A stretch of 64,000 nucleotides of DNA from Mya arenaria (lineage: Eukaryota; Mollusca; Bivalvia; Myida; Myidae): NCBI RefSeq assembly GCF_026914265.1, contig NC_069122.1, positions 39,216,514 to 39,280,513 on the forward strand, written 5' to 3'. A model generated the notes under the pieces. It saw only the letters and a list, made by a program, of their open reading frames with translations, had not been told where the DNA came from and did no database searches. Below are positions 6,560 to 41,800 of this stretch, in pieces; positions within the stretch are counted from its first letter, which is position 1, and each line of letters opens with the position of its first letter. The translations under genes and the position numbers were made by a program.

Positions 6560-6695
6560 TTTTACCAGCTGTTTGTCTGTGCAGAGCGGGAATTTTACCT
6601 GGGATTGGCTGGACCGAAAGTCAAAGTCCCCGCTATTAGCAGGACCTTGGGGGCCCATGCTGCAATTGACTGTTGCATTATTTGGATTTTTTCTT
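6560..6695 (+). mobile_element. Fragment of TGCACCAGTC-ended MITE (family 3)
   Basis: The string GGCTGGACCGAAAGTCAAAG and the closing GGGGGCCCATGC...CAATTGACTGTTGCAT match the right part of the element complete at 38021-38320 and the fragment at 46205-46301. The left end is missing. Confidence 0.55.
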
Positions 6696-7075
6696 AACTT
6701 TACGACACGCCCCCCTACAGTATTTTATAGTCAAGTTTAGTAATATTTTTTTACAGAAATTGGATAACTTAACAAGTAAAGTAAACTGTACTGAGCTTTT
6801 AAACAAACCTACATACTTATAAATCAAAATTGATATTTTAGGGTCTACACTGAATAAACCCAAAATGTTAGTTTTGATTTGCTAAATTCGAACAGTATTT
6901 AGTCAATCAACACAAAATTTACAGGATCATCAGATAACAAATTTTCTAAAAATTCTCTGTTTGCCAAATAGGGAAGACAGGTTTAAGTGGGATTAAAAGG
7001 TTGCTATCTGTGACCAAAAAAATACTGTTCAAAATTGTGAGTATTCATTTATCTTTTGTTCAGTAAAGAGCATGC

Positions 7076-7142
7076 AATGGCATAGTGGTTGGATTAGATA
7101 ATCTGACAGCGGTGCTGGACGTCAGGAGTTTAAATATTGTTG
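7076..7142 (+). repeat. tRNA-like repeat head (decayed SINE)
   Basis: TGGCATAGTGGTTGGATTAG resembles a tRNA box A region, and about 40 bp later GAGTTTAAAT is a worn box B. No acceptor-stem pairing is visible, so this is a repeat head and not a working tRNA. Confidence 0.4.
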
Positions 7143-10100: not shown

Positions 10101-10250
10101 CTCCATGACAGATATATATGTTTTCGTCATTGATGTCAGTACTGCTGTATTGGTGGCCTCACAATTTCTGTGTGGAAATGTCATCTGATACACTCATAAC
10201 GGCGTATTTCTAGCATAGCTTTCATAAGTGCATGGCCATTCTCTGTCATT
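7143..10250. other. Gene-poor stretch
   Basis: No supported gene. At 8437-8530 an acceptor-like TTTTCAG is followed by a Cys-rich frame (CKLRMNCVCRLCEQKRK) that ends in TAA after about 34 codons. It could be an exon remnant but has no partner. A 16-base C run lies at about 9535-9550. Confidence 0.35.
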
Positions 10251-10282
10251 TTCAGATACACTGTGTTGTGTGTGGATAAGAA

Positions 10283-10741
10283 ATGCAGAGTGGTACCACC
10301 AATCACCTAAGCCACCATTCCCCTAACAGACAAAAGGCTCATGGGGACAGTTCCTGCAGTTTACAGCAAATTGTAGCCCTACAAACTTCAGGTAAGTGAT
10401 AAATCTGGGCTTCAAGATATCTCTGTACTCACTTTAAGTTTATACTTCATTTGAACAAAACTTACAATTTCAGCATCAAAATCCAGGTTTAGATCCCAGA
10501 CCGAACCTTGTCTCCTTTATTAAACTTCATTTCAGATAATCTATAAGCCACATACATGTTCACTACTTATGGCGGATAAGAACTTTCGCAAATTGATTAT
10601 AAATGCGTTTTCCCAGATATACACCCTCCTCTTGCAGATACTGCCAAGCTTGGGTGCACTGGGCCGGTTATCCAGCCGTGTGGAATCAACATCTCCAGCT
10701 GAACTTGGGCCGGGAATTATATAAGAATCCTTAGCAGCATG
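10283..10741 (+). other. Two possible exons of an unassigned transcript
   Basis: An ATG at 10283 opens 36 codons that run into a strong donor at 10392 (TTCAG|GTAAGT). A good acceptor precedes 10638 (CTCTTGCAG), and that segment ends at a GTGAGC donor at 10742. Joined, the frame stops after about 18 more codons, so these are either non-coding leader exons of the unknown gene downstream or chance splice signals. No protein similarity is recognised. Confidence 0.25.
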
Positions 10742-11791
10742 GTGAGCTTTTGTGTATTTATTTCCAGGCTCGTATACCCGTCCAGACTTCTGCGTTTAAG
10801 CTTTCCTTTCGTCATTTTTTTAAATAAGGTATCTCAAGTCTTTCAATGAAATCACATCTTTGGAGGCTAGATTTAAATTAAGGAACCATTATGTGTAGAA
10901 AGCCTTTTGGGTGATTTAAAATCAAATTAGTAAACAGGATTCTCATGGTTCATGGTTTATAATTGGCCTTGTGGACCTTTCATTCTTTACTTTGGTAAGA
11001 GCCGCTTAGGTATGTAAGAAGGGGGGAGGGGGGGGGGGTACAGATGTGATAGTAAACAGTGTTTAATAAGGTATATTTGTTTTTATTTTATCACCATTTT
11101 GAAGGTAATGATTGTGTTATCAGGGATAAGTAACAAGTTTAACATAAACACTGTAACATGTTCTTTATTTCAAATAAAGCTATAAATTATCTCTGGAGAA
11201 TTTAGTCTGATCTCCATTTCTCAGAAAATGTAGCTGTCTAAGTGCCTATTCCATCAATGAGTATCACTGTCTTTAAATTGCTGTTGTGGTACAGTTTAAA
11301 TGGCAAAAGTTTTATGGCCCTGCTTGTTTGCAACTCCTCATTCATTTTTGTACAGCGAGAAAAGTAAGGGAATTCTAGAGATTTACTAGAATTATGGATT
11401 GTTTTTACTAGAATTATGAATTGTTTTTCTTGAGTTACACAGTACATAAGGAGGAATTAGTGTGTACACAACTCCTCATTTTATTCCTGTTTATTATTTT
11501 ATATATGTAACATAGATGTGTACAAGACCTACGGTACTGTAGAAACATGACATAAAAGAGCTCACTTTGATTAATTTCCTCAAAAAAAGATATCTTTACT
11601 GTTAAAGTAAGAACTTTAACTGCATAGTAAGTAATGTCTTCTGCTCATCTTTATGACATCATTACATGGAATGATGTCAACTTCCCAAGACACATTTCCA
11701 CATGGCGCAGCTCATTTATATATATTGCTGATGGATTGTTTAGAATGGGACAGTTTTAATTGGACATAATGTTTTAATCGCCATTTTACAG

Positions 11792-14420
11792 AGTGCCAGC
11801 CAGTCATTGCTGTTCTTTGCATTGCTGAGGAGGACAGTCCTGCCAACATAATAGTTTGTTCAATAACAGGTAAAAAACTGGTCTCACTTTACATTTTCAA
11901 CCACTGTTCGATCGTAACAATTATCAAAGAACCGGCTAGTCTCAATCATGAAGCCGCTCTAATTAGAGTCAATGAACGATATAGATCTGGATACAAGCGT
12001 CTAGATGATCGAGACTAAATTGGCAACATGAGAACATTTATTTCCTTTCCTGATTCTTGAAAATTACATGAACAAATGACAATTCTACTACCATTTAAAG
12101 CTTGATTAATTTTCGGACAAATGTGTTTGTTTTAATTTGCCTTCCGCTTAAAGTAAACGTATATATACTGGGCAAGAAGTGCTGAATTTCATCGTGAATC
12201 ACAGTGATTATCCAAAGTTTGAATTTGGTTCGGACATGTTTGACGGGAATTCAAAGACATTTTTTGTCAGCCGTCTTATATCACAGGTTTCCATGCATTT
12301 TGCATACATTGGTTCATTCCAAGATAAAAAATTATAACCTTTTTCAAAACGTTCAATCTGTGAGAGTGCAGCTTTAATAGACCTGTAAAGACTTGTCGAT
12401 GTGAAACTTAACTCTCAATCAAACTATGGTAAAAGATCAAATGCGGGGCTCCGTGTGCGGCATAGACTGCTAATTTTTATTTAATATGATGAAGAGCTAG
12501 TTAAGTTATCTTTTTTAAAAGTCTTCATTTGAAGAAAAAAAATGTTTCAATACCCTGTATGAATTTTCTTCACCGGATATTGATTCATAAAAATCATTGC
12601 TCCAGGGTGCGGAGCTACTTTTTGTTATATGTCTATATGGAAAAATCTTCTCCTCAGAAGTCAACTTTGTTCCCCAATGTGCAAGGCACAATCGGTGAAA
12701 ATAATTTCAGTAAAAGTCACTGATTATTATTATTGTGATTATTATTAATAAACTTTTACTATTTCAGGAGACAAACAGAAACACAGAGGTGCTATACATT
12801 CCGATGGAAAATACAACAAAAGAAGAATTTTAAGAAAGGTAATAACTGAGCAACTAAGAACATGCATGTTGCACTGGTCAGAGTGTAAGACCCATCTCGC
12901 TTCATAAGAATTGATAATCATCAATGTATTAAATCAAGAAATTGAAACGTAAGTGTCTTGTCTTTTGCAGTGTTTTTGAAATAGAATATAATTTTAAAAA
13001 AAAACTAAATTATTTTTTAATATGATTGTGAATGTGTGATGTTTTCTTCCGATCATTCTCTCTCAAAAACCAGATACAAAAAACATATTTGTAGATTTTT
13101 ATACGCCCAAAGGGTCGTATTATGTTATGGCCTCCATCGTCTGTCCGTCTGTCTGTCTGTCCGTCCGTCTGTCCGTCCGTTAGCAATTCCGTGTCCGGGC
13201 CATAACTTGGTAACTAATAAAGCAATTTTCAAATAACTTTATACAAATCATCACTACATTAAAAGGGTGTGTCGCGCGCAATTTCCAGGTCCATACCTCA
13301 AAGACTAGAATCACCATGGGGGGGGCGTTAGCAATTCTGTGTCCGGGCCACATCTTTGTTACTCGTCCGTTAGCAATTCCGTGTCCGGGCCATAACTTGG
13401 TAACTAATAAAGCGATTTTCAAATAACTTTATACAAAACATCACTACATTAAAAGTCCTCGAGCCGAATCTTCTTCGGGCGTATAATGCTCCGTTTCGCG
13501 GTGCTCTTGTTTTGTTTTACTTGTAAATTTAGTTTTAAGTTTGTATTTTAGGCAAAGCCTTTTATTCTGCTCAATACAAACTTAAATATTGTAAGAGTTA
13601 TGGCCCTTTGTAATTTTTAAACAAATACATTTTATTTCATGTTTTTGTAAGCCCATTATTTAGGGACTTTTAATATTTTCACCAGCAGCATTATAAAGTC
13701 AGACCAAAAGTGTCCAGTTAGTGTCCAAACAATAACTAAGTTAGAATCCTTTCTCAAATCAGGTGAGCGATATAGGGCCATCTCTGTGTTTGTCTGACAA
13801 AAAAACAATAATCAATCTTTGAGTTAAATTGACAAAATATTGTTGTAGAATGTTTTGTGAAGACATACTATTGGATTACTTTTGTGTCAATAGGATTAAG
13901 GTTTCTGCACATAAAAATTATTTAGAATAGCATTTGGGTCAGTCGGTTCACGTTCAATATTACTGATAGTATAAGTGGAAGCAGTGACTTAAAATTAATT
14001 ACCAAACAGTTTCTGCTCAATTGCTTTGAGTTAACATACGAGTTATGAAACTTGGAATACTAGTTCTTGGTGGCATAAATGAAAGACCTTGTTTTGTCAC
14101 ATTGACTTGTAATCAAGCACTAACTTCCTCTAAAAAAATTTCAGGTGATGGTTGGGCACACACAAGAAGACATAGATCACTGCCAAACTTACTTCATCAG
14201 AGGAGCAGAAAGCTTCCCAAGATCCCGCACTGCACACTTAGATATAGTCTTTGACTACAACAAGGGGGAGAAAGTACAGAGAGGTCCAATTGAAATCAAT
14301 TCTGTGCTGCGTCATTTCTTCATTCTGGAAGTCGATGGACATGATTTATCATGGCATCAGGTGTGCAGTTTGTCGACTATCAGCAGTCTTGTTCACCAGT
14401 TGTGCAACTTGAGCTGGTAG
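11792..14420 (+). CDS. Unrecognised spliced reading frame, 5' end not found
   Basis: Three segments join in phase without a stop: 11792-11869 (after TTTTACAG, ending before GTAAAA), 12768-12838 (after ATTTCAG, ending before GTAATA) and 14145-14420 (after ATTTCAG, ending at TAG). The joined peptide is about 140 residues and includes CQPVIAVLCIAEEDSPANII, then DKQKHRGAIHSDGKYNKRR, then VGHTQEDIDHC, where the middle part is strongly basic. VGHTxEDID recalls a motif I associate with transposon-derived proteins in invertebrate genomes, but the rest does not extend the match. No start codon is found upstream in frame, so it may be a partial gene, a domesticated transposon exon set or a pseudogene. 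Phase agreement across two introns is the main support. The last segment could also end at an internal CAG|GTGTGC donor near 14364. Confidence 0.4.
12240..12377 (-). mobile_element. 3' half of palindromic MITE family 1
   Basis: Contains the family sequence TTGTCAGCCGTCTTATATCA and closes with CAATCTGTGAGAGTGCAGCT. It lies in the intron between the first two segments of the unassigned frame. The opposite end is missing. Confidence 0.65.
13097..13488 (+). mobile_element. Non-autonomous repeat with TTATACGCCC inverted ends
   Basis: TTATACGCCCAAAG at the left and CTTCTTCGGGCGTATAATG at the right are inverted ends. The body has a pyrimidine-rich GTCTGTCCGTC run and two direct copies (from about 13179 and 13366) of CGTTAGCAATTCCGTGTCCG followed by GGGCCATAACTTGGTAACTA. 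Related CGTGTCCG-type sequence occurs at about 25955. It resembles repeats common in molluscan genomes; no coding capacity. Confidence 0.6.
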
Positions 14421-14953
14421 CTTTATTGCTTGAAGCCACAGCATAAGAGGGGGAAGGTGCAGGCTCATCAAAAAGTCTCAAAAGTTGAAACTAGGAAAAG
14501 AAGTTTGTCAAGAGTGTGAATATTTGCTTTGAAAACCATCGTTACGATGATTTGGTTTCCTTTGAAACTTGATACATACTATGTGTATGTTGAATGAATT
14601 GAGATGCTTAAATAAAGAACCGCTATTCAAATATCAGGAAACTGCATTTTTCATACTAAATGGTAAATGATGTCGCCATTTCCTGTATGTATTTAAATGA
14701 GATATGTTTCCACAATTAATATTTTTAGGGAATTTTTCTCATCCTAATGAATGAGATTAAATTGTACAGCGTTATATGAGCTTAATATGTGTTTTCTGTT
14801 TCTTTAAAATTGGTGAAAAATTGTCAGAAGATAATTAGACCAGTATCCATTACTGCAATCACACAATCAAATATACAGGGACAAACCCACTGGGCATATA
14901 ATATAATTAAACCCTGTTTAGGGGCACGAGGCAAACAGAGTTACTTTCAAACG

Positions 14954-15261
14954 TTAAAGCTGCACTCTCACATTTTGGACGTTTTGACAACTTTTCTCAT
15001 TTTATGTCTTGGATTGGAACCATCCAATTTTTGCGAAAAATTAAATGGCAGATTTTTCAATTTAAGTTAAAACATTGATGTTTTATGCACTTTTCTTAAA
15101 CCGTTAGTAACATTAATTTTTGAACGGAAATATGAAATCTGTGATCTGATCTTTTGTCAGCAATCTTTTATCATTGGTTTGCAGATAATTACGTAAAACA
15201 TTGCTCATTCAAAAACAAAAAAAGTTGTGAAAACGGTATATCTGTGGGAGTGCAGCTCTAA
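14954..15261 (+). mobile_element. Palindromic MITE family 1, copy A
   Basis: Begins TTAAAGCTGCACTCTCACA and ends GGGAGTGCAGCTCTAA. The two halves are inverted repeats of each other with a TTAAACCGTTAGTAAC-type centre. No coding capacity. Confidence 0.8.
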
Positions 15262-15710
15262 ATGTTTTCTTGATTTTACTACTGTATTAGAAATTACAGG
15301 GGTTGGGGCATATTTTTAGTGTTTTTATTGCTTTTTATTTTCATACAGTCATACTTTATTCCTCAGGGCATAACTTACAAATAGACAAAACTGGAAAATG
15401 GTCGTTTCAAAAGGCCAAAGATAATGCAAGTTGAACAATCATATTGTTCATGGCTTGTATTTTTGGTGTATTTTGTTGCATATGCTATAGAAAAGTTGAA
15501 AGTTAAAAATAAATTCATAGTTGAAATGATGGCTTTGAATGGTATTGTCAGATGAGAAACGGCACTTTTAAGAAATAGGTATAATGGTACTTTATTTATT
15601 TTGATCAATTTTAGATATTGTATGAAAATTATTATCTTATTTAGTACATGAGACCTTTTAAACAGTTATTGACAATATAACAATGTGTATATGAAGCTTT
15701 AGATCAACAC

Positions 15711-16062
15711 TTAAAGCTGCACTCTTACAGATTGTCAGTTAAGACACAAAATTGTCTCAAAATCTGCTGATTTGGTTATCATTCCTTTAATTCAGTCATA
15801 TTAGATAATTCACAATAGAACCCATCAGAAATGTAAAAGTGCCGAAAATTTCATTTACATTAAATTGTTTGTAATGCTTTTAGCCATAAAACATCATTTT
15901 TTTAACATAAATATGATAAAATGCTATCTGATCTTTTTTCAGCAGTCTTATATCACTTAAAATTGGGTCTAGACATTTATGCAAAAAAATTGTCCATTTA
16001 TAGACAAACAATAAAAGAGTACCGGTAGTCAAAACGATCAATCGGTGAGATTGCAGCTTTAA
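15711..16062 (+). mobile_element. Palindromic MITE family 1, copy B
   Basis: Begins TTAAAGCTGCACTCTTACAG and ends GAGATTGCAGCTTTAA, with TTAA at both borders. The interior shares GTCTCAAAATCTGCTGA and TTTTTTCAGCAGTCTTATAT with the other copies. Confidence 0.8.
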
Positions 16063-17877
16063 ATACACCTTTTAAGACCGCTGTAAAATTCCAATGGTTT
16101 GCCTAAATCTTTAAAGCTAGCATACTGTTTAATTAACAACCATACTTATTGTTTAAAAGTGTCATGATATCTTTGTACAATGTTTTTATATAATTCATTA
16201 AAGAAGTCAAAACAAATTTGTTTATCTTGTAAATTGTTTTCTATTATTTAAATGACCCAGACAAAAATGGGAACGTCAGTGCTAGTTCTTTTACTATTAA
16301 CATCCCATGAAGTTTCTATTGGTGTAGCAGCAAGGAGGTGTTATATTAAGGATGCATCATTTAAACCAAATTATACATTTGGCACCGTGCACCCCAGTTA
16401 AGTCGTGCAGCGTCGGGAACGGGCCAGTATATACACTCCGGTATAGTAGGGGTGGTCACCGAGCCCGAGCCACACTGTCTAAGGGGCACGTGCAATTGGC
16501 CATTAATTTGGGGAATTAGCTGGCACAACTGCGAGTTACCGTTTAAGTTCAGATCACGTTTAATGGTTCACTTTGATTAACAACTCAAGTCCAATTAAGA
16601 TGTTTAAAAGTTGGTTCTTTATTAATTCCACATTTGAGTTGAATAGTTAACAAAGATAAATCCAAAGACTTATTTAACAAGAAACATTCAATAGTCCATG
16701 TGATATATTAAGTTATGAAAGTAAGTGAATTAATTATATAGTCACAAAAAAAGTAGTTCAAAAATATTTCCTTAGTAAAAGAAGAAGTTCAAAGTTCCTA
16801 GTCTATATGTATATCTAATGAATATATTTCTCCTTCTCCTTAAATGAAAAATGTACATACTTATATACTAACTTAAAGAGTAGAAGTTACCAATCAGAAT
16901 TAAGTGATAAAAAGATAATGATCGAAGATTTTAGAAAGTGTCACTCAAAAATAATTATTGTCAAAAATAAAATTTACAATTAGATTAAGTCTGAGATAAT
17001 TGAGAAGTGTCAAAGTCTCAAAGAGTAAGGTTTATGATTATGATCTGAGATAATTAACTGATAATAATTAAGAAGAGGAAGCAGGAAAATCTTATCAGAA
17101 ATGTCAAAACACTCAATTGCAATTAGAATGACTGACAAAAGTCTCTTTAGGAAATTATGAAAGTAAATATCATAGAAAAATAAGATGTAACCAAAAAAAA
17201 GAACAATAAATTTTCTAACAGAATTTGAAAGAGAAAGTCACATGGTGACACATTCATATGCACAACATAGAGGCGTGTAGCCGCCTATACGTGAATACGC
17301 GGCTGAATCCACATGATTCTGACAAAAAAATCAACCAAAGTTGCAGTATGCGAACTTGACTACATGAATCTAAAACTGGTTATTTTCCAGTACTAAATAA
17401 TGCACATCGGAACGCCCAGAATGCACTAGATTGCACCATGGTTTTCAAAATTTTCAAGTTTGCCCCGAACCCCCAGCACATTTATGAATCCTCATGAATA
17501 GAGGGGTAGCTACGCCCCTGACATAATTGAAACCACAGTGTGGCTAAACAACACTTGTATGTTTATCCTACGCAGTGATCTCCCATGGAAATGCAATCGT
17601 CAAAGAATCTGAAGGGGATGTTTATATGGACTACATTTGAAATGCACCAAGTGTTTAAAAAAGTTGATTTCAGTCACGAAGAGAATCAACCATACCCCAC
17701 ACTTGTTGGAGTAAGATGAAATGTCCACTTTCCGCGAGAAAGAAAGTACATTGAAAATGTTCATTTGATTCAAGTGACTATTTTTTATAAATATGTTACA
17801 ATACATAAAATACGTTATTTTTTTATAATTGTTTACCCATGTTGAATTTTATTTGGCAAATTTATAAGAGATTTATA
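16063..17877. other. Gene-poor, AT-rich stretch
   Basis: No gene is seen. A short GC-richer island at about 16380-16500 and a solo transposon end AGCTACGCCCCTG at about 17508-17520 (as in the element at 50777-51110) are the only distinct items. The block 16600-17250 is A-rich and purine-biased. Confidence 0.4.
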
Positions 17878-17879
17878 TA

Positions 17880-19748
17880 CAAGGGCATAGCCAGAAGTTC
17901 GTGGAAAAGCTTGATAAAATGAAAACAATATGCAGCATATCTTTTAAACTTTCATACAATAATAATCAGGTAATTTGAAATTAAGAATGCGAGATTCATC
18001 GTAAAGCATGTTATAACGACAACGTAGTGATCACTATGGAAACAGGTGGTCGCGCATTCCTCCGCAGTTGCTAAAATAACCCATGACAATATCTTGTTTT
18101 GTTGACCACTCACATTGAAACCAATAAAACGGCGCGAAGGTTTGCACATTTGACGTGACGTTAATAACGTGTGATGAAGTGAAGTTTTAAGTCAGTGCGT
18201 TTGTTTGTTTATTTCAAAGGAAACATTTTAGCTTGAACGGAATAGTTAAATTTTGTTTAAAATGACGCCAGAAGACAGATTGATAAAACGGGCAGTGATA
18301 CAGTTCTGTGTAAACCTAGGGAAAACTCCATCGCAAACACTTAAACTGATGAATGAAGCATCGAGTGAAACTCAAGTGAAGCGAATGCTCGTTTACAAGT
18401 GGCACAAGCGGTTCAGTGAGGGGCGGGAAAGCATTTGTGACGACGTGAGGTCTGGGCGACCGGTTTCACAAACTACAGTGTGTGACGTCGAGGCCGTGAA
18501 AAACATCGTTGACGCTGATCGTCGAGTCACTCTTTATGAAATATGCAAGATGTTGGACATGAGTTATGGGTCGGTACGGAGGATAATGAAAGACAGTTTG
18601 AAAATGAGTCGAGTGAGTGCGCGTTGGGTTCCACGGCTGCTGACAGAAGATGAGATGAGCAAAAGAGTACGGGAATCACGCCGATCCTTAGCTCGGTACT
18701 AAAAGGAAGGAAACCGTTTTCTTGAGAAAATAGTCACTTGCGATGAAACCTGACTGTTTTATTTCGACTCGAGACAAAACAGCAAAGCAGTCAATGGAAG
18801 ACTACCAGTTCCCCGCCTCCGAAGAAGGCACGACCATCCTGCTCGATAGGAAAGTATATGTTCATTTTCTTCTTTGATGTGCACGGTGTTATCCTACTCC
18901 ATGCAGTTCCGCAGAGCCAATCTGTGACGGGTGCTTCCTACTAAAAGGTAAAGTGATATATAACAAAATTCATTTTTATCAATATTTAGGACTTGATAAA
19001 ATCTGCATAAAACAATGTTTTAAAAAGTTTATGATTAAAAATATGGGATTGAATAAGTGTTAGTTTTAATTATATTTGATGAAGTACGCAAAACGCGACA
19101 AATGTTATAAGCCTCAGTTATGTTCTCCATTTAAGGTTTTGAGGCGTGACTTGTAGAGGGCGATGGCATTTAAGAGACCACTGGCGTTGCATGATGGGTG
19201 GATTCTTCACCAGGAAAATGCATCAGCGCATAGATCGGAGGAGGCACCGACTACCGCGACAATCCAGCTTGAAGCGGAGATCCTTCCCCCCCCCCCCCCC
19301 CCCCCCACCCCCTTTTTCGCCAGACCTACCACCATGCGATTTTGCCCTATTTCCGAAACTTAAATGTGAACTAAAGGTAAACGCTTCAATGACTTTCAGG
19401 CACTACAGAGTGAAGCTCAGACACGCCTGTATTTTTACAAGTCAGAGTGGTTCAGTGACATTTAGCGGCAGTGGGTAGAGAGACTTCGACGTTGTATTGC
19501 GGCGAACGGCTCTTACTTTGATAAGTTATGACGTTGATGTCAGATTCTGACGTTTGAACTACGCGGGCTATACTGATCTCATGTTAATGAAAAAGCTGTA
19601 GTTTCCTTTATATTTTATGTATCAGTTTGAAGTTTTCTATGTCATTTACAGCTGAAATAGATTTTATAGCGAACTGACGTTCGTTGAAAAATATTAAAAT
19701 GTGTTGATTGTATTAAGGAATTCCACGAACTTCTGGCTATACCCTCGT
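17880..19748 (+). mobile_element. Mariner-type DNA transposon, complete ends, dead
   Basis: The left end CAAGGGCATAGCCAGAAGTT and the inverted right end (19722-19748) match at 25 of 27 positions and are flanked by TA at 17878-17879 and 19749-19750, the target duplication expected of Tc1/mariner. The 1.87-kb length exceeds the usual 1.3 kb, partly because of AT-rich DNA at about 18950-19140. The transposase inside is broken, so the copy can move only if an active relative acts on its ends. Confidence 0.92.
18262..19530 (+). pseudogene. Broken mariner transposase
   Basis: The intact first part, 147 codons from the ATG at 18262 to a TAA at 18700-18702, is the DNA-binding region. It has paired helix-turn-helix segments, including YKWHKRFSEGRESICDD and the SGRPVS linker that is typical of mariner transposases. 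Sequence past the TAA continues the family: a CDET block is followed at once by a TGA where Trp is expected, FFDVHGV is in another frame, then a 200-bp unrelated AT-rich stretch. HQENASAH follows, where the family usually has Asp-Asn (here Glu-Asn), and then SPDLPPCDF. A run of about 40 C bases (19267-19306) interrupts the region just before the last motif. Two stops, frame changes and the altered catalytic site make it non-functional. Confidence 0.92.
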
Positions 19749-23199: not shown

Positions 23200-23723
23200 A
23201 TACAAATGTATAACCTTTTCTTGTGACCACTATATAGCGGATTAAGGCTCTCCCAATTTGTCCCCGATCTCTGTATGAAAACATGATTATGCAAGATAAT
23301 AATTAGTTCCCCTTATCATGTCATACGCGAGCGGGTTATGGGGAGCGGCCTCGACCTTGCTTACCCAGGAATATTTATTACAGAATAAAATTAATTATAA
23401 GTAAGTAAGAATTTTGTCTATTATTGTGACATGTACATTTCAAACAAAGAAGAAATAGCATATTATATACAAACATTTGCACCCGACCCGAATGTTTTTT
23501 ACTATAACAGAACTGGGATGAGGGCTGGGGCATGATAATTAAGTATTTTTGAGAAACTTAAATTTTAAGTTCCGTTGTCAGCTTTATAGCAACACGTGAA
23601 ATGAACGGCTTGGCCTTTTTTTAAGCGCATCTAAAATTGACAAACAGTTTTTATATATTACACATATATTGGTTGTGCGTAACCTTCGCGATTATCGTAC
23701 AGGCGCAAAATTATATGCACCGA

Positions 23724-23786
23724 TGACGTCATTTTACCTAATATTTGTTGACAGATAATCGGAAGTAAATTTTCGGACGATACGCA
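23724..23786 (+). promoter_or_regulatory. Possible promoter and leader exon of the LYR/ASB gene
   Basis: A full palindromic TGACGTCA (CREB/ATF-type site) at 23724-23731 lies 55 bp before a strong donor (GCA|GTAAGTGA at 23787). The first coding exon downstream starts at an acceptor only 8 bases before its ATG, so a non-coding leader exon must exist upstream; this is the best candidate seen. No transcript evidence. Confidence 0.3.
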
Positions 23787-23996
23787 GTAAGTGATTTTGG
23801 GGGTTTTATGGGTCAGTTGCACGCAATACAAGCTTTACATTCATGGCATTGATGCATATTGCAGAGTAGTGATTAATGAAGAATAGAAACAGTTATGTAT
23901 ATGTTTTTTGTTGTTGTTTTTTTAATTTATATTTGTGCAACAATTCTTTTTTATTAGCTCAGTTTACCATGCATGTGAATTTGCAGTAGTCTTTAA

Positions 23997-24535
23997 TAAT
24001 AGACGTATTATACGGAATTCTTCCAATCCCTAACGTTTAAACCGGTTTGTGCAAAAACCGGGGGTGTTTGAAAAATATTGAAATTGTATTAAGTGTATTT
24101 TATGGTTGAAATTGATCATAAAGGTTAATATTCATATTTTACCATGTAAGTGAAAAGTTATTCTGCACAAAACAAGCATTTAATGCATTAAAACACATTA
24201 TTTACCTTCCAAATAAAACGAAAGTGGACTGACACAGACAACAATTATGCCAAGTGCAACAACTCGACCTAGTCTAAAATAATAGACGTGTTATACGGGA
24301 TTCTTCCAATCCCTAACGTCTAAACGGGAATGTGCAAAAAACGGGGGTGTTTTAAAAATATTGAAATTCTTTTAAGTGAAGTATTTTATGGTTGAAATTG
24401 ATCATAAAGAGTTATTTTCATATTTTACCATGTAAGTGAAATGTTATTTTGCACTAAACAAGCATTTCATGCATTAAAACAAGTTGTTTACCTTTCCAAC
24501 AAAACGAAAGTTGACTGACACTGACAACAATTATC
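23997..24535 (+). repeat. Tandem duplication, about 285 bp, two copies
   Basis: AATAGACGTATTATACGGAA at 23998 and AATAGACGTGTTATACGGGA at 24282 start two copies that stay alignable through CCAATCCCTAACGT, GTGCAAAAA, GATCATAAAG and CATTAAAACA. Copies differ by scattered substitutions. Confidence 0.8.
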
Positions 24536-24548
24536 CGAAGGGGGACAA

Positions 24549-25368
24549 CTCGTTACAATCGTAAGAACTCGGCCTCCTCCGACAAAGCTTCGAGAAAGAC
24601 CTCGTTATACAATCGTAACAACTCGGCCATGGCCGAAATGTTCCGAGCGATTTAAAACTGTGCCCTGAAGCCTTGCAGGTGCCCTTCATGTATATATCGT
24701 TATGTTTTGACAGAATGAAATGAAGAAAAGCCGTCAAACTCATAATTATAAGTTGGATATTTATTTTTTGTGTACGGAACTAATATAAAATAACATTATC
24801 TGGTAATATTTCTTGTTTTTATGATATTTTATAGACGCTATATGCTTTAACCCGGAATCCTGATCGGAACAACTACCCACTTTTGATACTAAACAATTTG
24901 TACGTGAAGGATTTGCCATATCAAAAATCTAAAAAAAATCTGTCAACGTACAATTATTTGGACTACAACTCAACCCAATCGTAAAAACTCGGCCTCCGAC
25001 AAGCTTCGATATAGACCTTGTAAATACAGTCCTAACAACTCGGCCATGGCCGAAATGTTCTGATTGTTTTAAAATTGTGCCCTTCATGTATATATCGTTA
25101 TGTTTTGACGGAATGAAATGAAAAAACACAACATCGAAGTCATAATTGTTCATTGGCTTTTTATTTTTTGTGTACGGAACTCATATGAAATAACCTAATC
25201 TAGTAATATTTCTTGTTTTTATGATATTTTATAGACGCAATATGCTTTAACCCGGATTCCCGATCGAAATAACTTCCCAATTTTCTTACAAGACAATTTG
25301 CATACAGTGAAGGATTGCCAAATCGAAAATCGTAAAAAAATCTGTTAATGTACAATTATTTGGACTAA
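24549..25368 (+). repeat. Tandem duplication, about 400-420 bp, two copies
   Basis: The first copy (24549-24960) and second copy (24970-25368) share AAAACTCGGCCTCCGACAAG-type starts, GTATATATCGTTATGTTTTG, TTTTTTGTGTACGGAACT, TATTTCTTGTTTTTATGATA and TGTACAATTATTTGGACTA. The first copy also carries a partial inner repeat of the CTCGGCC phrase. It lies immediately upstream of the LYR-motif coding exon. Confidence 0.8.
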
Positions 25369-25542
25369 AATTTGCAGATACTGAGATAGTCCACCTAAAT
25401 GGGTGTAAAGTAACTCTTGGAAGAGTGTTCCCAGTGCACACCCAATTTCACCAGAATTGCCTATCCAGTGTGCTAGAAAGTATGATTATCATTGATCACT
25501 CCTTGTACATACCGGTATTTGTTTGCCTTTTCAGGACCAGTG

Positions 25543-26741
25543 ATGACAGGCAGCAGTCATGTCCTGTCTTTGTACAGACAGCTTCTAAGGAAAGGCCAAG
25601 GTCTCAAACTGACAAACAAGGAGTACTTCTTTAACAGAGTGCAGACAGAGTTCAGGAACAATAAACGCCTTCACAAAGCAGCAGACATCAAAACTGCTAT
25701 AGAGGTGTGTTAAGTTAAGGTGAATTATAATGCCTCCCCAATCAATGGGGAGAAATATTGTTTTTGCTCGATTTGTCTGCCCATCCGTCTTTCTATTCAT
25801 CACAAATTGTGTCCACTCCATTTCTCTTTAACTGCTTGAAGGGTTTTGAAATAATAATAATTATCCACAAATGTTCACCAGATTGAGAAAATGTGTAGGG
25901 CAGGTCAGTTCAAGGTCAAGGTCATACTTACAGGTCAAAGGTCATTTGATTCCATTCCGTGTCCGCTCCATATCTATTGAACTGCTTGAAGGAATTTCAA
26001 ATAACTTCCCACAAAAAGGCCACAATGTTCACATATTGAGACAATGTGTACAGTACGTGTTACAAACAGCTCCATTCAAGGTCAATATCACACTTAGAGA
26101 TCTTTTTACTTTGTTATTGTGTCAATATGCTTCAAACTACCAACATGTGTAATCAACAATGTCTCGAGAGTCCTTGATGATATATTTTCAATTAAGTTAT
26201 TTAAAAAAGATTGGAAAATAGTGGGTGAAATTTCTTTCCTGATTTCAAAAATGCAAATATCTTTTTTAAAATAGCTGCAATCACCACTAAGCCTCAAGAC
26301 ATTGTTGATTTGGTAGCTCCGATACTTTTGACTCATAAACATATTCATTTTGTATTCATGAAGACATTTCCGGGAAAATGTAATGCTTTTTTATTGGAAA
26401 TCTGATCAAATCTTCTTGCTTAAAAATTGCTCATCTACTTATTACAGCTTCACATGTTGCAACGGATATATATGAACTATGCTTGCTATATATTGAACCT
26501 CAAAACTATATAAATTGATTTTTTTAAGCATTTTAAGCCTTGGTCCTTTAAATGACGTTTCCATTGTGGCCGGCCCTTAATATCATCTTAGATCTATGTA
26601 GTTGCTCTTTTAGTGCTGTTCAAGTTTATATCCTTAAAAAGAAAATTGTTATACACTGTATCATGTAAATAATATTTATATAGTGTTATTTGTTACTTTC
26701 AGAAAGCAGAGACGTTTTTGAAGAATGACAGACTAGTATGA
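25543..26741 (+). CDS. LYR-motif microprotein, resembling MIEF1 upstream-ORF product
   Basis: Exons 25543-25704 (after acceptor TTTTCAG at 25534; donor GTGTGT) and 26703-26741 (acceptor CTTTCAG; stop TGA) join in phase to 66 residues. It starts MTGSSHVLSLYRQLLRKGQG, with the LYR motif at residues 10-12. Next come Tyr-Phe-Phe at 28-30 and EFRNN at 36-40 with the conserved Phe37, and the end is KAETFLKNDRLV. This is the whole LYRM (Complex1_LYR) fold. Spacing and length (about 70 aa) match the microprotein translated from the 5' leader of vertebrate MIEF1 better than LYRM1, 2, 4, 9 or SDHAF1, judged from memory. Known relatives act in mitochondria with acyl-carrier protein, and the MIEF1 microprotein is reported to help mitoribosome assembly and translation. 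The stop lies in the same exon as the next protein, 80 nt before its ATG, so this frame is an upstream ORF of that mRNA unless the two are transcribed separately. Confidence 0.85.
25735..26105. repeat. Dispersed molluscan-type repeat in the LYR intron
   Basis: Has two diverged direct copies of a GTGTCC(A/G)CTCCAT ... GAACTGCTTGAAGG ... AATGTTCACC/ACATATTGAGA block with GGTCAAGGTCA phrases. Shares CCGTGTCCG wording with 13097-13488. No coding content; frames across it are chance. Confidence 0.55.
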
Positions 26742-26821
26742 ACATTATGGAATATGCTACAAATCTTGAACTGACAACAGAAAAAATACTATAAACTTGC
26801 GGCTGCTTTTTAAAAAAAAAG

Positions 26822-27649
26822 ATGGCGAATTTGAATGAAGAGCTTGCGGACAGCATTTTAATGATAAATGCTGTGCAAGCAAATGATGGAATTGTACTCA
26901 GACAGCTACTTGAAAAGAAACAAACACAAGCAAACCTGGACACAAGCTTGTGTTGGGCGTCACGGCTTGGTCACTATTGCCTTGTCGTAATGCTCATCGA
27001 TTATGGAGCCAGCCCTGGATCAGAAGTCTGGGGTGGATTTACACCATTGCTATGGGCAACCATTTTTGCAGGTGATTTGAATGTGATCCACTATTTGATA
27101 AAATGTGGTGGAAATGTGAACCACTGTTCCAACAAGCGAAAACAAACGCCGCTCCATGCAGCTGTTATTAAGGGGGACCACCTTGTCGCGCAGGCCCTGA
27201 TAGATGCTGGCGCAAATCTAGACCACCAGGATTATCTTAACAAGACTCCTTTGCTCCATGCTGTACAAAGAAATCTTCAGGAATGTGTTAAAACATTGAT
27301 TTTGAACAACTGTAATGTAAACCTGCCAGGATTTGTAAATGGATCTCGATTATCTCCCTTGTTAGTGGCTCTTTTACAAAATAACTTGGAGATTACTAAA
27401 ATGCTTATTCTAGCTGGAGCAAGATTTGAACAAATGGCTATATACCAGACATACACGTTAAGGCAGTTTTACAGGACTGTCGAGGATAATTTGAATTTTG
27501 AGATTAGACCTGTGTATTTGAAACAGCAATGTCGAGTAAGCATTCGAGAGTTTTTGAAGCCCCAGTTTTTAGAAAAGCTTCGAAAAATTGACTTGCCTCC
27601 TGCCCTACGAGCTTTTATTAGTATGGAAGAACTGAATAGAATGTTTTAG
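26822..27649 (+). CDS. Ankyrin-repeat SOCS-box protein (ASB-like)
   Basis: A 275-residue single-exon frame from an ATG in good context (A at -3, G at +4). About five ankyrin repeats run over residues 36-65, 71-101, 106-136 (KQTPLHAAVIKGDHLVAQAL), 139-170 and 177-205. The C-terminal SOCS box is at about 232-270, with an elongin-binding BC box (YLKQQCRVSIREFL, Leu and Cys in place) and a LPPALRAF stretch like the cullin-5 box. ASB proteins use the ankyrins to hold a substrate and the SOCS box to recruit elongin B/C and cullin 5 for ubiquitination. The substrate cannot be read from sequence. I do not assign a vertebrate orthologue; the length suits the short ASB members. It shares its exon with the end of the LYR microprotein. 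A short 18-codon frame (26738-26794), whose ATG overlaps the microprotein stop, lies between them and may influence reinitiation. Confidence 0.92.
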   Translation: MANLNEELADSILMINAVQANDGIVLRQLLEKKQTQANLDTSLCWASRLGHYCLVVMLIDYGASPGSEVWGGFTPLLWATIFAGDLNVIHYLIKCGGNVNHCSNKRKQTPLHAAVIKGDHLVAQALIDAGANLDHQDYLNKTPLLHAVQRNLQECVKTLILNNCNVNLPGFVNGSRLSPLLVALLQNNLEITKMLILAGARFEQMAIYQTYTLRQFYRTVEDNLNFEIRPVYLKQQCRVSIREFLKPQFLEKLRKIDLPPALRAFISMEELNRMF

Positions 27650-27684
27650 ATATTTGTTTTAGATATTTGCTTTTTTAATAGTTT

Positions 27685-28074
27685 TTAAAGCTGCACTCTC
27701 ACAGATTGAACGTTTTGACAACTTTTATATATTTTGTCTTGGAATGAGCCAATATATGCGAAAATACATAAATGGAAACCAGTGACATAAGACTGCTGAC
27801 AAAAAATCAGTTCGCAGATTTTCATATTTAAGTTAAATAAATGATGTTTTATGCATACCGGTATTTCTTACATATATAAACTGTAGTAACCCTTTTAGCC
27901 AAAAAATATTCATTTTTAAAAGGAAATTTATATGAAAATCTGCAACCTGATCTGTTGTCAGCAGTGTTATATCACTAGTTTGCAGATAATTATAATTTAT
28001 GCTAAAATTGGCTCATTCCAAGGCAAAAAATAAAAAAAGTTGTCAAAATGGTAAATCTGTGAGGGTGCAGCTTA
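27685..28074 (+). mobile_element. Palindromic MITE family 1, copy C, in ASB 3' UTR
   Basis: Begins TTAAAGCTGCACTCTCACAG 36 bases after the ASB stop codon and ends GGGTGCAGCTTAA. The two halves are inverted repeats along most of their 390 bp, so transcribed RNA would fold into a long hairpin. It also brings AATAAA words of its own (near 27836 and 28028). Confidence 0.85.
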
Positions 28075-28990
28075 AAAGGGACTCACTCATGTATTTTGAC
28101 CAAAAATATTTCTTCAGCATTTAAGAACGCATGAGTGAGTCAGTTTAATACATTCATGCGCCATTGTTATCTTGTTATCGACTATTTGTTTTAACCCATA
28201 ATTATATATTGTAATGTTATTATATATATATTTTTTTGTTTTTGAGAAATGTTTTTAATGACTTTTCAAGTTTGTTTTTTACTTTAACATACATTATATA
28301 CCTTTGTAATTATACACCTTTGTAATTTTGGTATGCAGAGATGAATGTGTGTATTGAGGTTTTTTAATATTTTAATGATATGAACATTCCTGTATAATTA
28401 ACATTCTTTTATCATATTGCTAAGCTTGTTTTTCGTGTAATTTAACTTGAAATTGAAATCATCTCACTCTCTGTAAGTTACATGTTTTAAGCACCAAACG
28501 TTTACCACAAAATATATGAAGTCTTCATACTTGGCTACAAATGTGAAGAATTTTTCTTCTTTATGAGTTACAATGTACCACAAAATCTGATAAATCTCTT
28601 TTAACCATGGTCCACTGGAAAGTATAGAATAATTAGTATATATACATGTTTGAGTATAAAAAAGAAATATCATTAGTCGCCATATATCTGATCAATTAAA
28701 ATGGAAAGGAACTTCAGGTTCCTTTCTTTTGTTTGATAAATCAATGAGATTTCAAAATATAAAAATACTAAATGATGTTAAATACTAAATGATGTTAAAT
28801 ACTAAATGATGTTTTAATTACAATGATAAAGTTATTCCTTTGTCCTACATACATGTATTATTCCCAGAGCACATGCCCATAACTTATAATAAGGTGAAAA
28901 CTGTTAAGAAAGAACACATTTTGCTGTTGAGTTTTGATTTTGTAATTTGTTTGATAAAGTTTTCCAAAATAAATACGTTGAACTTCAAAA
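28075..28990 (+). terminator. Probable 3' UTR and polyadenylation signal of LYR/ASB gene
   Basis: Non-coding AT-rich sequence with three 17-bp copies of AAATACTAAATGATGTT at about 28766-28816 and an AATAAA at 28968-28973. No gene is seen up to the repeat at 29149. The true cleavage site could be earlier, at an AATAAA within the MITE. Confidence 0.4.
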
Positions 28991-29148
28991 AGTCTTAGCA
29001 AATATTGTGTGTTGTTTTCATTAAAAAAACATGTGTCTAAAATGTAAGAGATAGCACCATTTTAGATAGCTAGGGCCCTGAAGAATTTGTCCTATAATAA
29101 TCACCGTCTCTCCGCCGGACAAACATTTAGGGTTATTTATGGGTTTTT

Positions 29149-37000: not shown

Positions 37001-38729
37001 ATATCACGTGATAACATCGACTAACCAATCACGCATAAGGAATGAATTCTACTAGGTAGACATACCCAGTAGTCTTTTTTAATGGAAAAATACGAAATAA
37101 CTGCTAAACTTAAACAAATTGTAAACTATGTGGTACTTCAGTTAGTAAGTTTCAATGCATTGTACACATTAATACCAAGTTTATGTCAGTTTTCGACCAT
37201 TTTCTTTTTTTCTTGCAAATTGATCATCTGGTGCACAGTTGCTTTAAGACGTGTGTCCCTTTAATTTGCTGCAGCTATTTGTATATAGAGCAAATTCTGT
37301 TTTTATCTGACATCAAACTGTCTTACTCTTAATAGTACAGGGCTATAATAAAACATTCAGTACACTGAGGTCACGTTACGGTCATTGCATTTTGTGGGCA
37401 TTACATTTGTAGACGAGATAAAGATAAATGAATTGGCGTTAGGTTTCTACCACGGCTTGATAATATTTTAATTCCAAAATTATGTATTTGTATTTACAAG
37501 TATTATTGCCTTTATGTTTGATCTAAAGACCCTATTAGATTAAAGGTTTCGTCGTGTTTTTTTGTTTTTTTTTTGTCTTCTGTGCAAAATAAAGTGATGA
37601 TAAAGCATGTTAAATACACGACCAATCTCTTTCTTACTAATATTTTTTAGTCAGTTAAGTCAATAATATTATATTATGAACTAAGGCGCTGCCTTAACAG
37701 GCTTAAAGTCTTATTGCCGGACACGTTAAAGTTAGAGTCTACTTAATGACTAATAGAAACATACCTGGAGTGAAAGAAAAAAAAATCATTTGCGTTAATA
37801 AACATTGAAAATCTTTCACCCTATTTAAAATATCAAGCAGTTCTGACGTTGTTGGCCATTTATTTAATATATATACAAACACGTACAAAAATTATGTATA
37901 CATTATATATAATGCATTATACTATAAATCAAAGTTTGGAGTTGTCCTACTCATTTCAGCTTAAAAGGAGCTATTGTGCATTTGAGATTAAGTACACAAA
38001 CGCATTTAAAGAATATGTAATGCACCAGTCAATTGTAACCACGCCCCCCCCCCCCCCCCCCCCAGGTCCAAAGATTAGCGGGAATTTGACATTCGGTCCA
38101 GCCAAGCCCATGTAAAATCCCCACCAAATGCCCCCGCACCCCAGGGACCCTAGGTAAGGTCCATTACCCGCTATATTTGGTGCGAAGACAAAACCACCGC
38201 ATTCGCCCGGCACTGCGGGGCCACACGAAATGTAAAAACATGGCCCATTTACACGGCTATCCCAGGTATACCCCCGGACCTAGGGAGAGGGGGGGGGGCG
38301 TGGTTACAATTGACTGGTGCATAGCACACAGAAATAATGTGTTAGTCAGTAAAGTCATTAATATTATAAAAGCATCTCATGTCATCAGGTCGATGGAACT
38401 ACCGAGGAAGAGACTTCATACCGGAAGTTGGCAATGGAGGTGGAGAGCGCCGCGAGCGGGCTGCAGGCATTCGGCGTACAAAAGAATGACGTCATCTGTG
38501 TCGTCTCACCGAATCACCCAGACTACCTCGTGGCGTTCTACGCTACCACGTTGATTGCGGGAACGTTTCAACCAGTCAACCCAATGTATACAAAAGGTAG
38601 AAGCGTTATTGATGTTTGAACTGCAAAGATTCATCGACAGGGTGGATGGGGGGGGGGGGGGGGTAGATCGTCGTTGGTGCATAGCTACTTCTACTTCTAA
38701 AATGATGATTATGATGATTATTATGATGG

Positions 38730-38760
<31 letters not shown>

Positions 38761-38762
38761 AG

Positions 38763-38805
<43 letters not shown>

Positions 38806-41800
38806 TTTGCAATTTTAATTATAAAAACAGCCTAACAGCTCATACTAAGATATATGTACCATGATTTCAGATGACATTGTGAAAGTATTCAAGCAATGTA
38901 AGTCGAAGTTTATCATGACCACTTCAGAACTTTTACCCAAGGTAAAAGAGGCATCAGCAGAATTTCCAACTATTAAGGTACGTAGTCAAAGGTTTAAACC
39001 TTAATCATGAATCATCATCTTTCAACATCGTATTAAGTTGCAGTGAATTGTTCGTAGCATTTGTTAACATATGTAAATGGAACCGTGGATGTTTGTCATA
39101 AAAACCATCATGTATGTAATAAGAAGACTGAAAAATGCAGCAAATTGTACAGTCAAAACTCGCTTAGTCGAAGTCGTGGCGACCTCAGGAAAAAAAACTT
39201 CGATATAACGAGCATTCGATATAACCGAAATACAAAAGGTGTAAAATTAAACCAAACGCATTCGTATTTTCATTGAGCTCAATGAAATAACTTGTTTTGA
39301 CGTTATGTTATAATGACCTTTATGTCGATCCAATAAAACTGGTCGCCATAAAGTGTTTTCTGTGACCATTTTGCTCGGACTTCGCAGATAATAATGTTTG
39401 GGGAGTCTCCAGGCTACACCAGCTTCCGGTCCCTGTTTGACCACTCACATGGCCCTTACGTGTCACCGGATATAGACCCCAAATCAGATGTAGCGGCCCT
39501 CATGTCCTCTTCCGGTACAACAGGATTCCCGAAAGCCGTCCGTATGACACACTACTCCATCGTGGCTAATACCCTACAACAGAGGTCAGTTGTTTATTTT
39601 TTGTTATTTTAAACATACAGTCGAAACTCGCTATGTCGAACTCGGATATCTCGAAATTCCGATTATGCAGAACTTCTTTCGAATATTTTGGGGAAAATGA
39701 GACATGTTTTTTTCGGTTATGTCAAATGTTCGTTAACTCGAACCTTTTCCCGAGGTGCGAAAGACCACGTCATAGCGAGTGTTAATTGTAATATTCGTTT
39801 TGTTATGTCATATTGCAAACAGTGGATATCCGGCTAGGATTGTTGTTTTTTTGTTGTTGAAAAAATACGTCTTAAATTCACCAAATCTTACACTTACTGT
39901 GTAACAGATTATTTCTCATGAAAATATGAGCCAATGCTTATTTTCGCACGTATGTGACTAGGTGTTCAGTCGCGTAGCTACATATATAGGCCATGTAGAC
40001 CTGGGCCTGCAACTTTTTTTGAAAAATGACAAAAATTAAACAACCCAAAAATGCAATAAAAACTAATAGCTACTCAAACACTTTGAACAACTAAAAAGTT
40101 AGTTTATTTTAACTATAGTTTGGTGTTTATTTAAACTACGTACAGGGTGTATTGGTTGATTTTATTGTAATCATTGCACATAAAATTGAGTGTGTGTAAT
40201 GCACATATAAAGTCCCCAAACTCACAGAGAACCATCAGGTCTACATTTTTTTGGCCTAGCTACGACCCTGGTTTTGCGAAAAGAACGTCGTTGTCGTAAC
40301 ATTCTACAGTGTTTAAATGGAGAGCTATGACAAATAATCCACATGCCCAAAATATACAGTCGAACCCTGTTGGCTCGTACTCGCTTGGCTCAATTTTCTC
40401 GCTTGCTCGAACTGGATGTTAAGGACCAAATTTATTCAATGTTAGCATTACCGCTTGGCTCGAATTTCCTGTGGCTCGAGGTATTTTCACCGGTCCCTGG
40501 GTGTTCGAGCCAACGGGGTTCGACTGTATGTCTCTTACAATCAATAATGCCTTTTGGTTGCGACAAATTGATCAAAAGCGCCCTGGTCCTGTTTCTTCTA
40601 TTTCCCCAGGTATTCGGCCTAAACCTGATCATCTATAATTCGCATGTCCCTTCCTCCAAGCTCAACTCATATTTTCTTTTAATTGTTCTCAGATGCGCCG
40701 GACTGAACACAAGCGCCGACACTTTGGTTGTATTCCTGCCATTCTTCCACGCTTATGGCCTCTACTTAGTCAGCTACTACGCCCATCATCTTGGTGCAAG
40801 GCTCGTCGTCATGTCAATGTTTGAACCCGATAAATACCTCTACCTCATCGAGAAATATAAGGTAAATTAAAGCATTCGGAGCTCCTCGGCCATTTTTATT
40901 GAAAACGACCTCGGATGTATGCCGGTACATCGTTAGAAGTAGTTCGTAAAATTTTGAATTTATTAAATGTAGTGTTGTAGCTTGAATTTGTAGATTTAAG
41001 TTTGAATTGATTGTCAGTGAATTGTATTAATGCAAACATAATTAAAATTCCCAAGTGTTAAGTCATTAAGTTTACCTGCTAAATTGAAATTACTACGCGA
41101 TCTACTTGCAGCGTAGTTAACGTGTACCGATGTCCGACATTGTAAACTGTCCATATTTATCCGAAGTTGTTTTCGATAAAAATGGCCGAGGAGTTCCGAA
41201 TGAAAATAAAGATGCCGCACCGGTGTCCAATCACGACATTATCATGTAAACAGATATGGTTTGCTAGAACGAATCGAACGGTCTTGGACACAATAAATGA
41301 CTTGATGTCAAACATACTTAAATGGAGGTCAGCCTCGACTAAGGCAATACCACAATTTAGCTTCATCGGACGGGTTGTATTTCGTCTTTCAAATCGTAAG
41401 TTATGAACAATACATATACCTCCACAATCAGCCAAAACAAACAGATTTAAGGATTGAAGGAGCTGATAATGATGCAATCAGGCACGATTAGTTAGGAAAA
41501 TAGTGTTAAGTGTACACAGATAAATGGCTAGTCAAATGTAGAACACATGGATATGACCTTATCGATAAAATTTCATGGTAATCAGTTAATGTTATACAAA
41601 GAATAAATTTGGTATGGCCTCATTTGTGAAGCCGTATTTTATCACACATATACCAAATCATCGTTAAGCCCAACCTAATAAAAGTGGTACCTTCTGTGAT
41701 AGTGATGATGGATTTCTCATAAGAACCCATAACCTTCCCAACTTAAAATCGATCATAGTTGTTGTCATTTCTTTTTATTTAATTACCATGAATATTTCTA

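What the first reader, a model, noticed from the sequence alone, without database searches (positions are those of the whole stretch)
25543..27649. LYR-motif microprotein and ASB-type ubiquitin-ligase adaptor encoded on one mRNA
The 66-residue LYR protein ends at 26741 in the same exon where the 275-residue ankyrin/SOCS-box protein begins at 26822, with no splice or terminator signal in the 80 nt between. Vertebrates make a very similar LYR microprotein from the leader of MIEF1, also a two-protein mRNA. Here the same kind of microprotein heads a transcript whose main protein is unrelated to MIEF1. This suggests that the 'upstream LYR ORF' habit is older than, or independent of, its vertebrate partner. 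I do not know of a description of this pairing.
Basis: partly seen in the sequence, partly recalled or inferred. Interest (0 to 1): 0.88.

Follow-up and report, generated by a model that had tools for sequence, protein, structure and literature searches.

The report
Paired LYR–ASB gene in molluscs
In a clam, the gene for a tiny protein whose human relative helps build mitochondrial ribosomes sits 80 letters ahead of a gene for a ubiquitin-ligase adaptor, probably on the same messenger RNA, and the two are also neighbours in a limpet.

Summary
The window is soft-shell clam (Mya arenaria) DNA. A two-exon, 66-codon LYR frame (25543-25704 + 26703-26741) is followed after 80 nt, in the same exon, by an uninterrupted 275-codon ankyrin/SOCS-box frame (26822-27649). 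The LYR protein groups with AltMIEF1/MIEF1-MP, the mitoribosome-assembly microprotein that vertebrates read from the MIEF1 leader. The second is an ASB-type adaptor; its model fits ASB9 over residues 8-269.

New here: the pairing looks old. A coding 5' exon piece was found at 23876-23891.

Not shown: that one mRNA carries both frames, or that ASB is translated from it. For: no good splice site or canonical poly(A) signal until 187 nt past the ASB stop. Against: five extra AUGs before the ASB AUG, a TATAAA 32 nt upstream of it, and public records that keep the two apart.

MIEF1-MP outside vertebrates is already known; my paper searches found no LYR-ASB pairing. Most likely an ancient molluscan two-cistron locus, parallel to MIEF1 rather than its ancestor.

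The parts
23724..23731 (+). TGACGTCA, CRE-like site upstream of the 5' exon (motif name recalled; function not tested)
   Evidence: one of 3 copies in the window
23760..23766 (+). CGGAAGT, ETS/GABP-like site near the presumed transcription start (motif name recalled; function not tested)
   Evidence: one of 3 copies on the + strand, 3 more on the - strand
23787..23792 (+). GTAAGT, possible donor of a non-coding 5' exon ending at 23786
   Evidence: top 2.4% of GTs in the window; use inferred, no RNA seen
23876..23891 (+). Start codon and first codons of the 74-aa LYR isoform (MKNRNR...), donor GT at 23892; the 5' end of this exon is not known
   Evidence: the donor is weak by my matrix (66% of GTs score as well), but the joined frame gives P0001 exactly
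25535..25704 (+). Exon 2; LYR start at 25543 (context GTG-ATG-A)
   Evidence: acceptor in the top 0.2%, donor in the top 0.5%
25543..25704 (+). LYR microprotein, first coding part (54 codons)
25705..26702 (+). Intron, phase 0; relatives whose frames read through into V... suggest the same position
26703..26741 (+). LYR microprotein, last 12 codons and stop
26738..26794 (+). 18-codon frame whose ATG overlaps the LYR stop (ATGA); obstacle to scanning
26742..26821 (+). 80-nt gap: no GT, poor AGs, TATAAA at 26790, A9 tract 26812-26820; 26703-26860 is less structured than shuffles (z +1.45)
26822..27649 (+). ASB-type ankyrin/SOCS-box protein, 275 aa, uninterrupted, start context AAG-ATG-G
27518..27619 (+). 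SOCS box (residues 233-266), with an LxxxC stretch and an LPP stretch like the elongin-C and Cullin-5 boxes (motif names recalled)
27836..27841 (+). First canonical poly(A) signal after the LYR stop; further AATAAA at 28029 and 28968

Best explanation
The locus is an old molluscan gene pair read as one transcription unit: a 5' exon ending at 23891 or 23786, the LYR exon, and an (inferred) last exon holding the end of the LYR frame, an 80-nt gap, the ASB frame and the 3' UTR. Shown: both frames code for conserved proteins, they are neighbours in this order and strand in the clam, and their relatives bear consecutive locus tags in a limpet. Inferred: LYR transcripts run through the ASB frame to the poly(A) signals at or after 27836, so one mRNA carries both. 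The 5' cistron gives an AltMIEF1-type mitoribosome-assembly factor. The 3' cistron gives the substrate receptor of a Cullin-5/Elongin ubiquitin ligase, made at a lower rate by ribosomes that reinitiate after, or bypass, the LYR frame, or from a minor shorter mRNA. If the LYR stop lies in the last exon, no exon junction downstream would mark the mRNA for nonsense-mediated decay. Because the ASB frame is uninterrupted while the LYR frame is split, the pair may have arisen when a reverse-transcribed ASB copy landed in the 3' region of the LYR gene. Sub-estimates: conserved adjacency 0.97; a mRNA with both frames exists 0.7; ASB translated from it at a useful rate 0.45; retrocopy origin 0.4.
Against: No RNA was examined. 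Public records treat the two as separate (two locus tags in Patella; P0001 and P0002 in Mya). Between the LYR start and the ASB start lie five other AUGs, four with A at -3; with the longer 5' exon four further AUGs come first, three of them out of frame with LYR (exon start guessed). The last short frame ends only 27 nt before the ASB start, so leaky scanning or ordinary reinitiation should be inefficient. TATAAA at 26790 could be a weak poly(A) signal for LYR or a TATA box for ASB (chance of one in 80 nt about 6-7% at the window's rate); variant hexamers also lie inside the ASB frame. The gap shows no stable fold. Four of seven LYR rows that look molluscan (P0067, P0068, P0075, P0076) have no ASB row of equal contig length; each row lists only the longest contig of a cluster, so I count this as uninformative rather than contrary.
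Confidence: 0.62

Rival explanations
1. Two closely packed but separately expressed genes: LYR mRNA ends in or just after the gap, and ASB has its own promoter in intron 2 or at the TATAAA. The neighbourhood is conserved because the genes share regulatory DNA or by slow rearrangement.
For: TATAAA at 26790, 32 nt before the ASB ATG, followed by a T5 run and A9; AAGATGGC around the ASB start resembles a start element of short-leader genes (recalled; 2 copies on the window's + strand); separate records in Patella and Mya; five AUGs in the way.
Against: No canonical poly(A) signal before 27836. A TATA box at that spacing would start transcription almost on the ASB ATG (usual spacing recalled), leaving hardly any leader. 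The ASB frame shares its exon with the LYR end.
Confidence: 0.28
2. A sub-case of the best explanation rather than exclusive of it: one transcript is made, but ASB is translated little or not at all from it; the LYR protein is its product and ASB is served by other mRNAs.
For: AUG burden and the 66-codon first frame; in human MIEF1 the microprotein is the main product (PMC6283296, passages).
Against: The ASB frame is conserved at 44-75% identity to the window in 38 relatives and keeps its SOCS box, so it must be translated from something, and no other place in the clam genome encodes it but the C7 copy.
Confidence: 0.2
3. The pairing is a quirk of the clam assembly, for example a local artefact or a recent insertion.
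For: A near-identical inverted copy of some 47 kb on another contig shows that this region is duplicated or redundantly assembled.
Confidence: 0.02

Closest known systems
MIEF1 bicistronic mRNA of vertebrates (AltMIEF1 / MIEF1-MP / L0R8F8 uORF followed by the MiD51 frame)
   Same: A closely related LYR microprotein of about 70 residues as first frame and a larger protein after it.
   Different: The second protein is an ankyrin/SOCS-box adaptor, not MiD51. The LYR frame is split by a phase-0 intron, whereas the human coding sequence lies in exon 2 (PMC5703645, passages). Expression of both from one transcript is shown in human and not here.
MIEF1-MP subfamily of LYRM proteins
   Same: Sequence, length, LYR motif, three-helix model, best matches to human and mouse AltMIEF1.
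   Different: Import, ACP binding and mitoribosome binding untested in the clam.
ASB family (ASB9, ASB8)
   Same: Ankyrin repeats followed by a SOCS box; fold match to ASB9 over residues 8-269.
   Different: No one-to-one vertebrate ASB assigned; 26% identity to ASB9 in the structural alignment; substrate unknown.
GPR75-ASB3 read-through transcript (human)
   Same: An ASB frame in a transcript with an unrelated upstream gene (PMC3951408, passages).
   Different: Described there as a read-through product of two genes; no LYR protein is involved.

Membership tests
MIEF1-MP (AltMIEF1) subfamily of LYRM proteins | Complex1_LYR domain with LYR motif and downstream F | tested here: met
   PF05347 48.9 bits over a cut-off of 24.8; LYR at residues 10-12 and F at 37; in 27 aligned rows L10, Y11 and F37 are invariant and R12 is kept in at least 90%.
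MIEF1-MP (AltMIEF1) subfamily of LYRM proteins | Closer to AltMIEF1 than to other LYRM proteins | tested here: met
   PDB sequences: AltMIEF1 1.6e-9, LYRM4 4.2e-5; profile 85.2 bits against 24.9, 22.0, 21.0 and 16.2 for four other clam LYR exons (profile of 23 of the 27 non-Mya rows). No family tree was built.
MIEF1-MP (AltMIEF1) subfamily of LYRM proteins | Binds acyl-ACP and MALSU1 on the mitoribosomal large subunit | not testable with these tools
   Stated for the known protein in PMC11293456 section 7 and seen in the titles; needs biochemistry in the clam.
ASB (ankyrin repeat and SOCS box) family | Several ankyrin repeats followed by a C-terminal SOCS box | tested here: met
   (39 of 39 members at E 1e-3; the precomputed Pfam lists lack the SOCS box for P0024, P0037, P0038, P0040 and P0042 of these); ASB9 fold over model residues 8-269. 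A sequence search with the C-terminal 55 residues alone found nothing at E 10.
ASB (ankyrin repeat and SOCS box) family | Binds Elongin B/C and Cullin 5 | not testable with these tools
   Box-like motifs seen by eye (motif names recalled); binding not tested.
MIEF1-type bicistronic mRNA | Both frames on one mature mRNA | tested here: inconclusive
   Sequence signals favour it; no RNA data.
MIEF1-type bicistronic mRNA | Second frame encodes MiD51/MIEF1 | tested here: not met
   Second frame is ankyrin/SOCS box. A search of the clam genome for MID51-like_C found nothing, but no control rang, so absence of MIEF1 in the clam is not shown.

The most novel reading that the evidence does not exclude
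The AltMIEF1 gene has at least twice become the first cistron of a two-protein mRNA, with MIEF1 in vertebrates and with a reverse-transcribed ASB adaptor in early molluscs. In molluscs the pair has been kept since before bivalves and gastropods parted, so that translation of a mitoribosome-assembly factor gates production of a Cullin-5 ubiquitin-ligase receptor, tying mitochondrial ribosome building (and perhaps eIF2 stress, as proposed for human MIEF1) to protein turnover.
Probability: 0.33. Interest if true: 0.75.

Novelty: new variant of a known kind. Interest (0 to 1): 0.56.

Why it matters
Transcripts that carry two proteins are called rare in eukaryotes (abstract of PMC3951408, search listing), and why MIEF1 carries its microprotein is, in my view, unsettled. 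A second, unrelated partner behind the same microprotein, kept between a bivalve and a limpet, gives an independent case: if both partners answer to stress in the same way, the first frame rather than the partner is the regulatory device. It should be testable with mollusc long-read RNA data.

Tried and rejected

Artefact: rejected by the limpet locus tags. Splicing between the frames: rejected on splice scores. Structured IRES in the gap: no support; 26703-26860 folds worse than its shuffles (z +1.45; 184 of 200 shuffles fold at least as well), and no Rfam family reaches its gathering score in 23500-29100.

SOCS-less isoform: P0002 (241 aa) ends KCF in place of the SOCS box, which needs an intron from a donor at 27536 to an acceptor near 27640 that scores very poorly; the 39 aligned members keep the box, so I treat P0002 as a doubtful model.

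MIEF1 elsewhere in the clam: PF21297 gave no hit, but no control rang; PF03281 was asked once and not answered. Cross-species DNA: genome contigs gave three bacterial ankyrin loci only, viral contigs no relative. The LYR protein search of the own genome did not complete. Transcript evidence from short public contigs: not usable, because several LYR rows read through the intron and so look genomic, and the DNA of those contigs could not be fetched. NCBIfam gave only generic ankyrin matches far under their cut-offs for the ASB proteins and none for the LYR proteins.

Literature: no LYR-ASB pairing seen with the terms, whose listings were mostly capped (two returned no paper; the three papers of 66 were seen in the listing only and look unrelated). 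Subscription papers and preprints are largely not held, so this is not proof of absence.

Full report
What is there. The window lies on a contig of a 1.22-Gb genome in 18 contigs. Its LYR frame is 100% identical to a Mya arenaria record (P0001) and its ankyrin/SOCS frame 100% over 87% of its length to another (P0002), so this is soft-shell clam DNA. The splice sites score well and the 80-nt gap has none that does (matrix of recalled human-like frequencies). P0001 is a 74-aa isoform that begins MKNRNRPV; a pattern for those codons matches the window once, at 23876-23893, and joining 23891 to 25535 gives P0001 exactly. That donor is weak; a better one at 23787 would give a non-coding first exon and the 66-aa form (inference). 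CRE-like and ETS-like sites lie just upstream, at 23724 and 23760 (names recalled, function not tested).

What the first protein is. It passes the Complex1_LYR cut-off. Its best solved relative by sequence is the MIEF1 upstream-ORF protein of mitoribosome entries (1.6e-9), ahead of LYRM4 (4.2e-5). A profile built from 23 of the 27 non-Mya relatives gives it 85.2 bits, while four other LYR exons of the clam genome get 16-25 bits. The predicted structure is three helices with modest confidence (pLDDT 74.9); the first two of 112 Foldseek matches (E up to 10) are human and mouse AltMIEF1 chains, but the best E-value is only 5.3e-3 and ISD11 follows closely, so the fold alone does not separate LYRM types. 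Relatives from oyster, insects, a hemichordate and vertebrates carry NCBI names such as AltMIEF1 or MIEF1 upstream ORF protein; those of the limpet, an annelid and a chytrid are called hypothetical. Ten relatives (P0066-P0068, P0072, P0075, P0077, P0082-P0084, P0092; by eye) run into a valine and then stop or diverge at the very position of the clam's phase-0 intron, as the clam frame itself does (AIE-VC). This points to an old intron there. The human coding sequence lies in exon 2 of MIEF1 (PMC5703645, passages).

Is the pairing more than chance? Yes. In Patella caerulea the ASB relative is SNE40_023223 and the LYR relative SNE40_023224, both with a contig of 43,996,941 bases. A comparison of 43 ASB rows with the 27 LYR rows that have lengths gave three equal lengths: Mya, Patella and this one (21 bacterial-type ankyrin rows were left out, and none of their lengths equals a LYR one). 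Seven LYR rows look molluscan by name or similarity (P0001, P0066-P0068, P0075, P0076, P0078); three have the match and four do not. Each row shows only the longest contig of a 90% cluster, and contig counts are often lower than member counts, so I do not take the four as evidence against. In a genome of some 25,000 genes (assumed), two given genes are neighbours by chance about once in 10,000. Order and strand outside the clam were not seen. Bivalves and limpets parted more than 500 million years ago (recalled).

One mRNA or two? No RNA was available. For one mRNA: shared exon, no good splice site between, no canonical poly(A) signal from 26691 to 27836. LYR transcripts must either end on a weak signal or run through ASB. 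If that exon is the last, no exon junction follows the LYR stop. For two: a TATAAA at 26790, which could act as a weak poly(A) signal or a TATA box and has about a 6-7% chance of lying in such a gap (rate); an A9 tract; variant hexamers inside the ASB frame; and public records that keep the two apart. For translation of ASB from a long mRNA there are real obstacles: five AUGs other than the LYR start precede it, one overlapping the LYR stop, with an 18-codon frame ending 27 nt before the ASB start. The ASB start context is good (A at -3, G at +4) and the region is unstructured. In human MIEF1 both proteins come from one transcript, the microprotein in excess. MIEF1 was named a candidate for resistance to eIF2 inactivation, though short of that study's strict criteria (PMC4383229, passages), and the repressive effect of its uORF depends at least partly on the encoded sequence (PMC7530721, passages). 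Whether the clam mRNA behaves so is inference.

Origin. A split LYR frame followed in the same exon by an uninterrupted ASB frame is what a reverse-transcribed ASB copy landing in the 3' region of the LYR gene would leave. I did not map introns of other ASB genes, so this is a proposal (0.4).

Relation to known work. PMC11293456 treats MIEF1-MP as one of 12 LYRM subfamilies across 22 eukaryotes and calls it less abundant (passages and sections 6 and 7). Another study writes that MIEF1-MP evolved during vertebrate evolution (PMC10032668, passages); the invertebrate relatives speak against that. The conserved-uORF survey PMC7530721 and the list of 14 human two-protein transcripts in PMC13303939 both include MIEF1; the words invertebrate and LYR do not occur in the main text of the first, nor invertebrate and mollus in that of the second. 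No paper in the listings describes LYR with ASB as far as titles and abstract starts show.

Copy number. Window 4556-51804 recurs inverted on contig C7 at 98.5% (4556-16278) and 99.5% (16329-51804) identity (the 4556 edge is only the limit of what I fetched). 23500-29100 differs at two places in 5601, neither in a frame or the gap. The public records P0001 and P0002 sit on a contig of the same length as C7. The stretch 58800-59300 has no full second copy, so the duplication is bounded on that side. It may be a recent segmental duplication or a leftover second haplotype; a published Mya assembly of 1.22 Gb in 17 scaffolds used haplotig purging (PMC10663159, passages).

Verdict. A real and probably ancient pairing; a likely but unproven two-cistron mRNA; a new variant of the MIEF1 kind of arrangement rather than its ancestor.

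Noticed in passing
window 4556-51804 and G000:C7:9003421-9051700: Inverted near-identical copy on another contig (98.5-99.5% identity over about 47 kb; 99.96% over 23500-29100); segmental duplication or uncollapsed haplotype. No full copy of 58800-59300.
   Followed up: partly
L005 and L006 (G000:C11 and C13): Another LYR gene (L005 SDHAF1-like by eye, recalled; L006 not read) has two places with equal score and span on different contigs, so such duplicates may be common in this assembly.
   Followed up: no
window 27536-27640: The public 241-aa Mya model P0002 (named ANR17-like) lacks the SOCS box, apparently through an intron with a very poor acceptor; probably a wrong model.
   Followed up: partly
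window 18250-19475 (+): Frames resembling a mariner-type transposase (by eye, recalled).
   Followed up: no
window 38362-47347 (+): Exon-like frames resembling an acyl-CoA ligase (by eye, recalled), with a tandem array at about 43.1-45.4 kb between them that is open in several frames.
   Followed up: no
window 53717-54010 (+): Rgp1-like exon (Pfam Rgp1, E 9.5e-5, 22.2 bits, below the curated cut-off of 31).
   Followed up: no
window 26738-26794 (+): An 18-codon frame starts on an ATGA overlap with the LYR stop, the arrangement used in some termination-reinitiation systems (recalled); conservation unknown.
   Followed up: no
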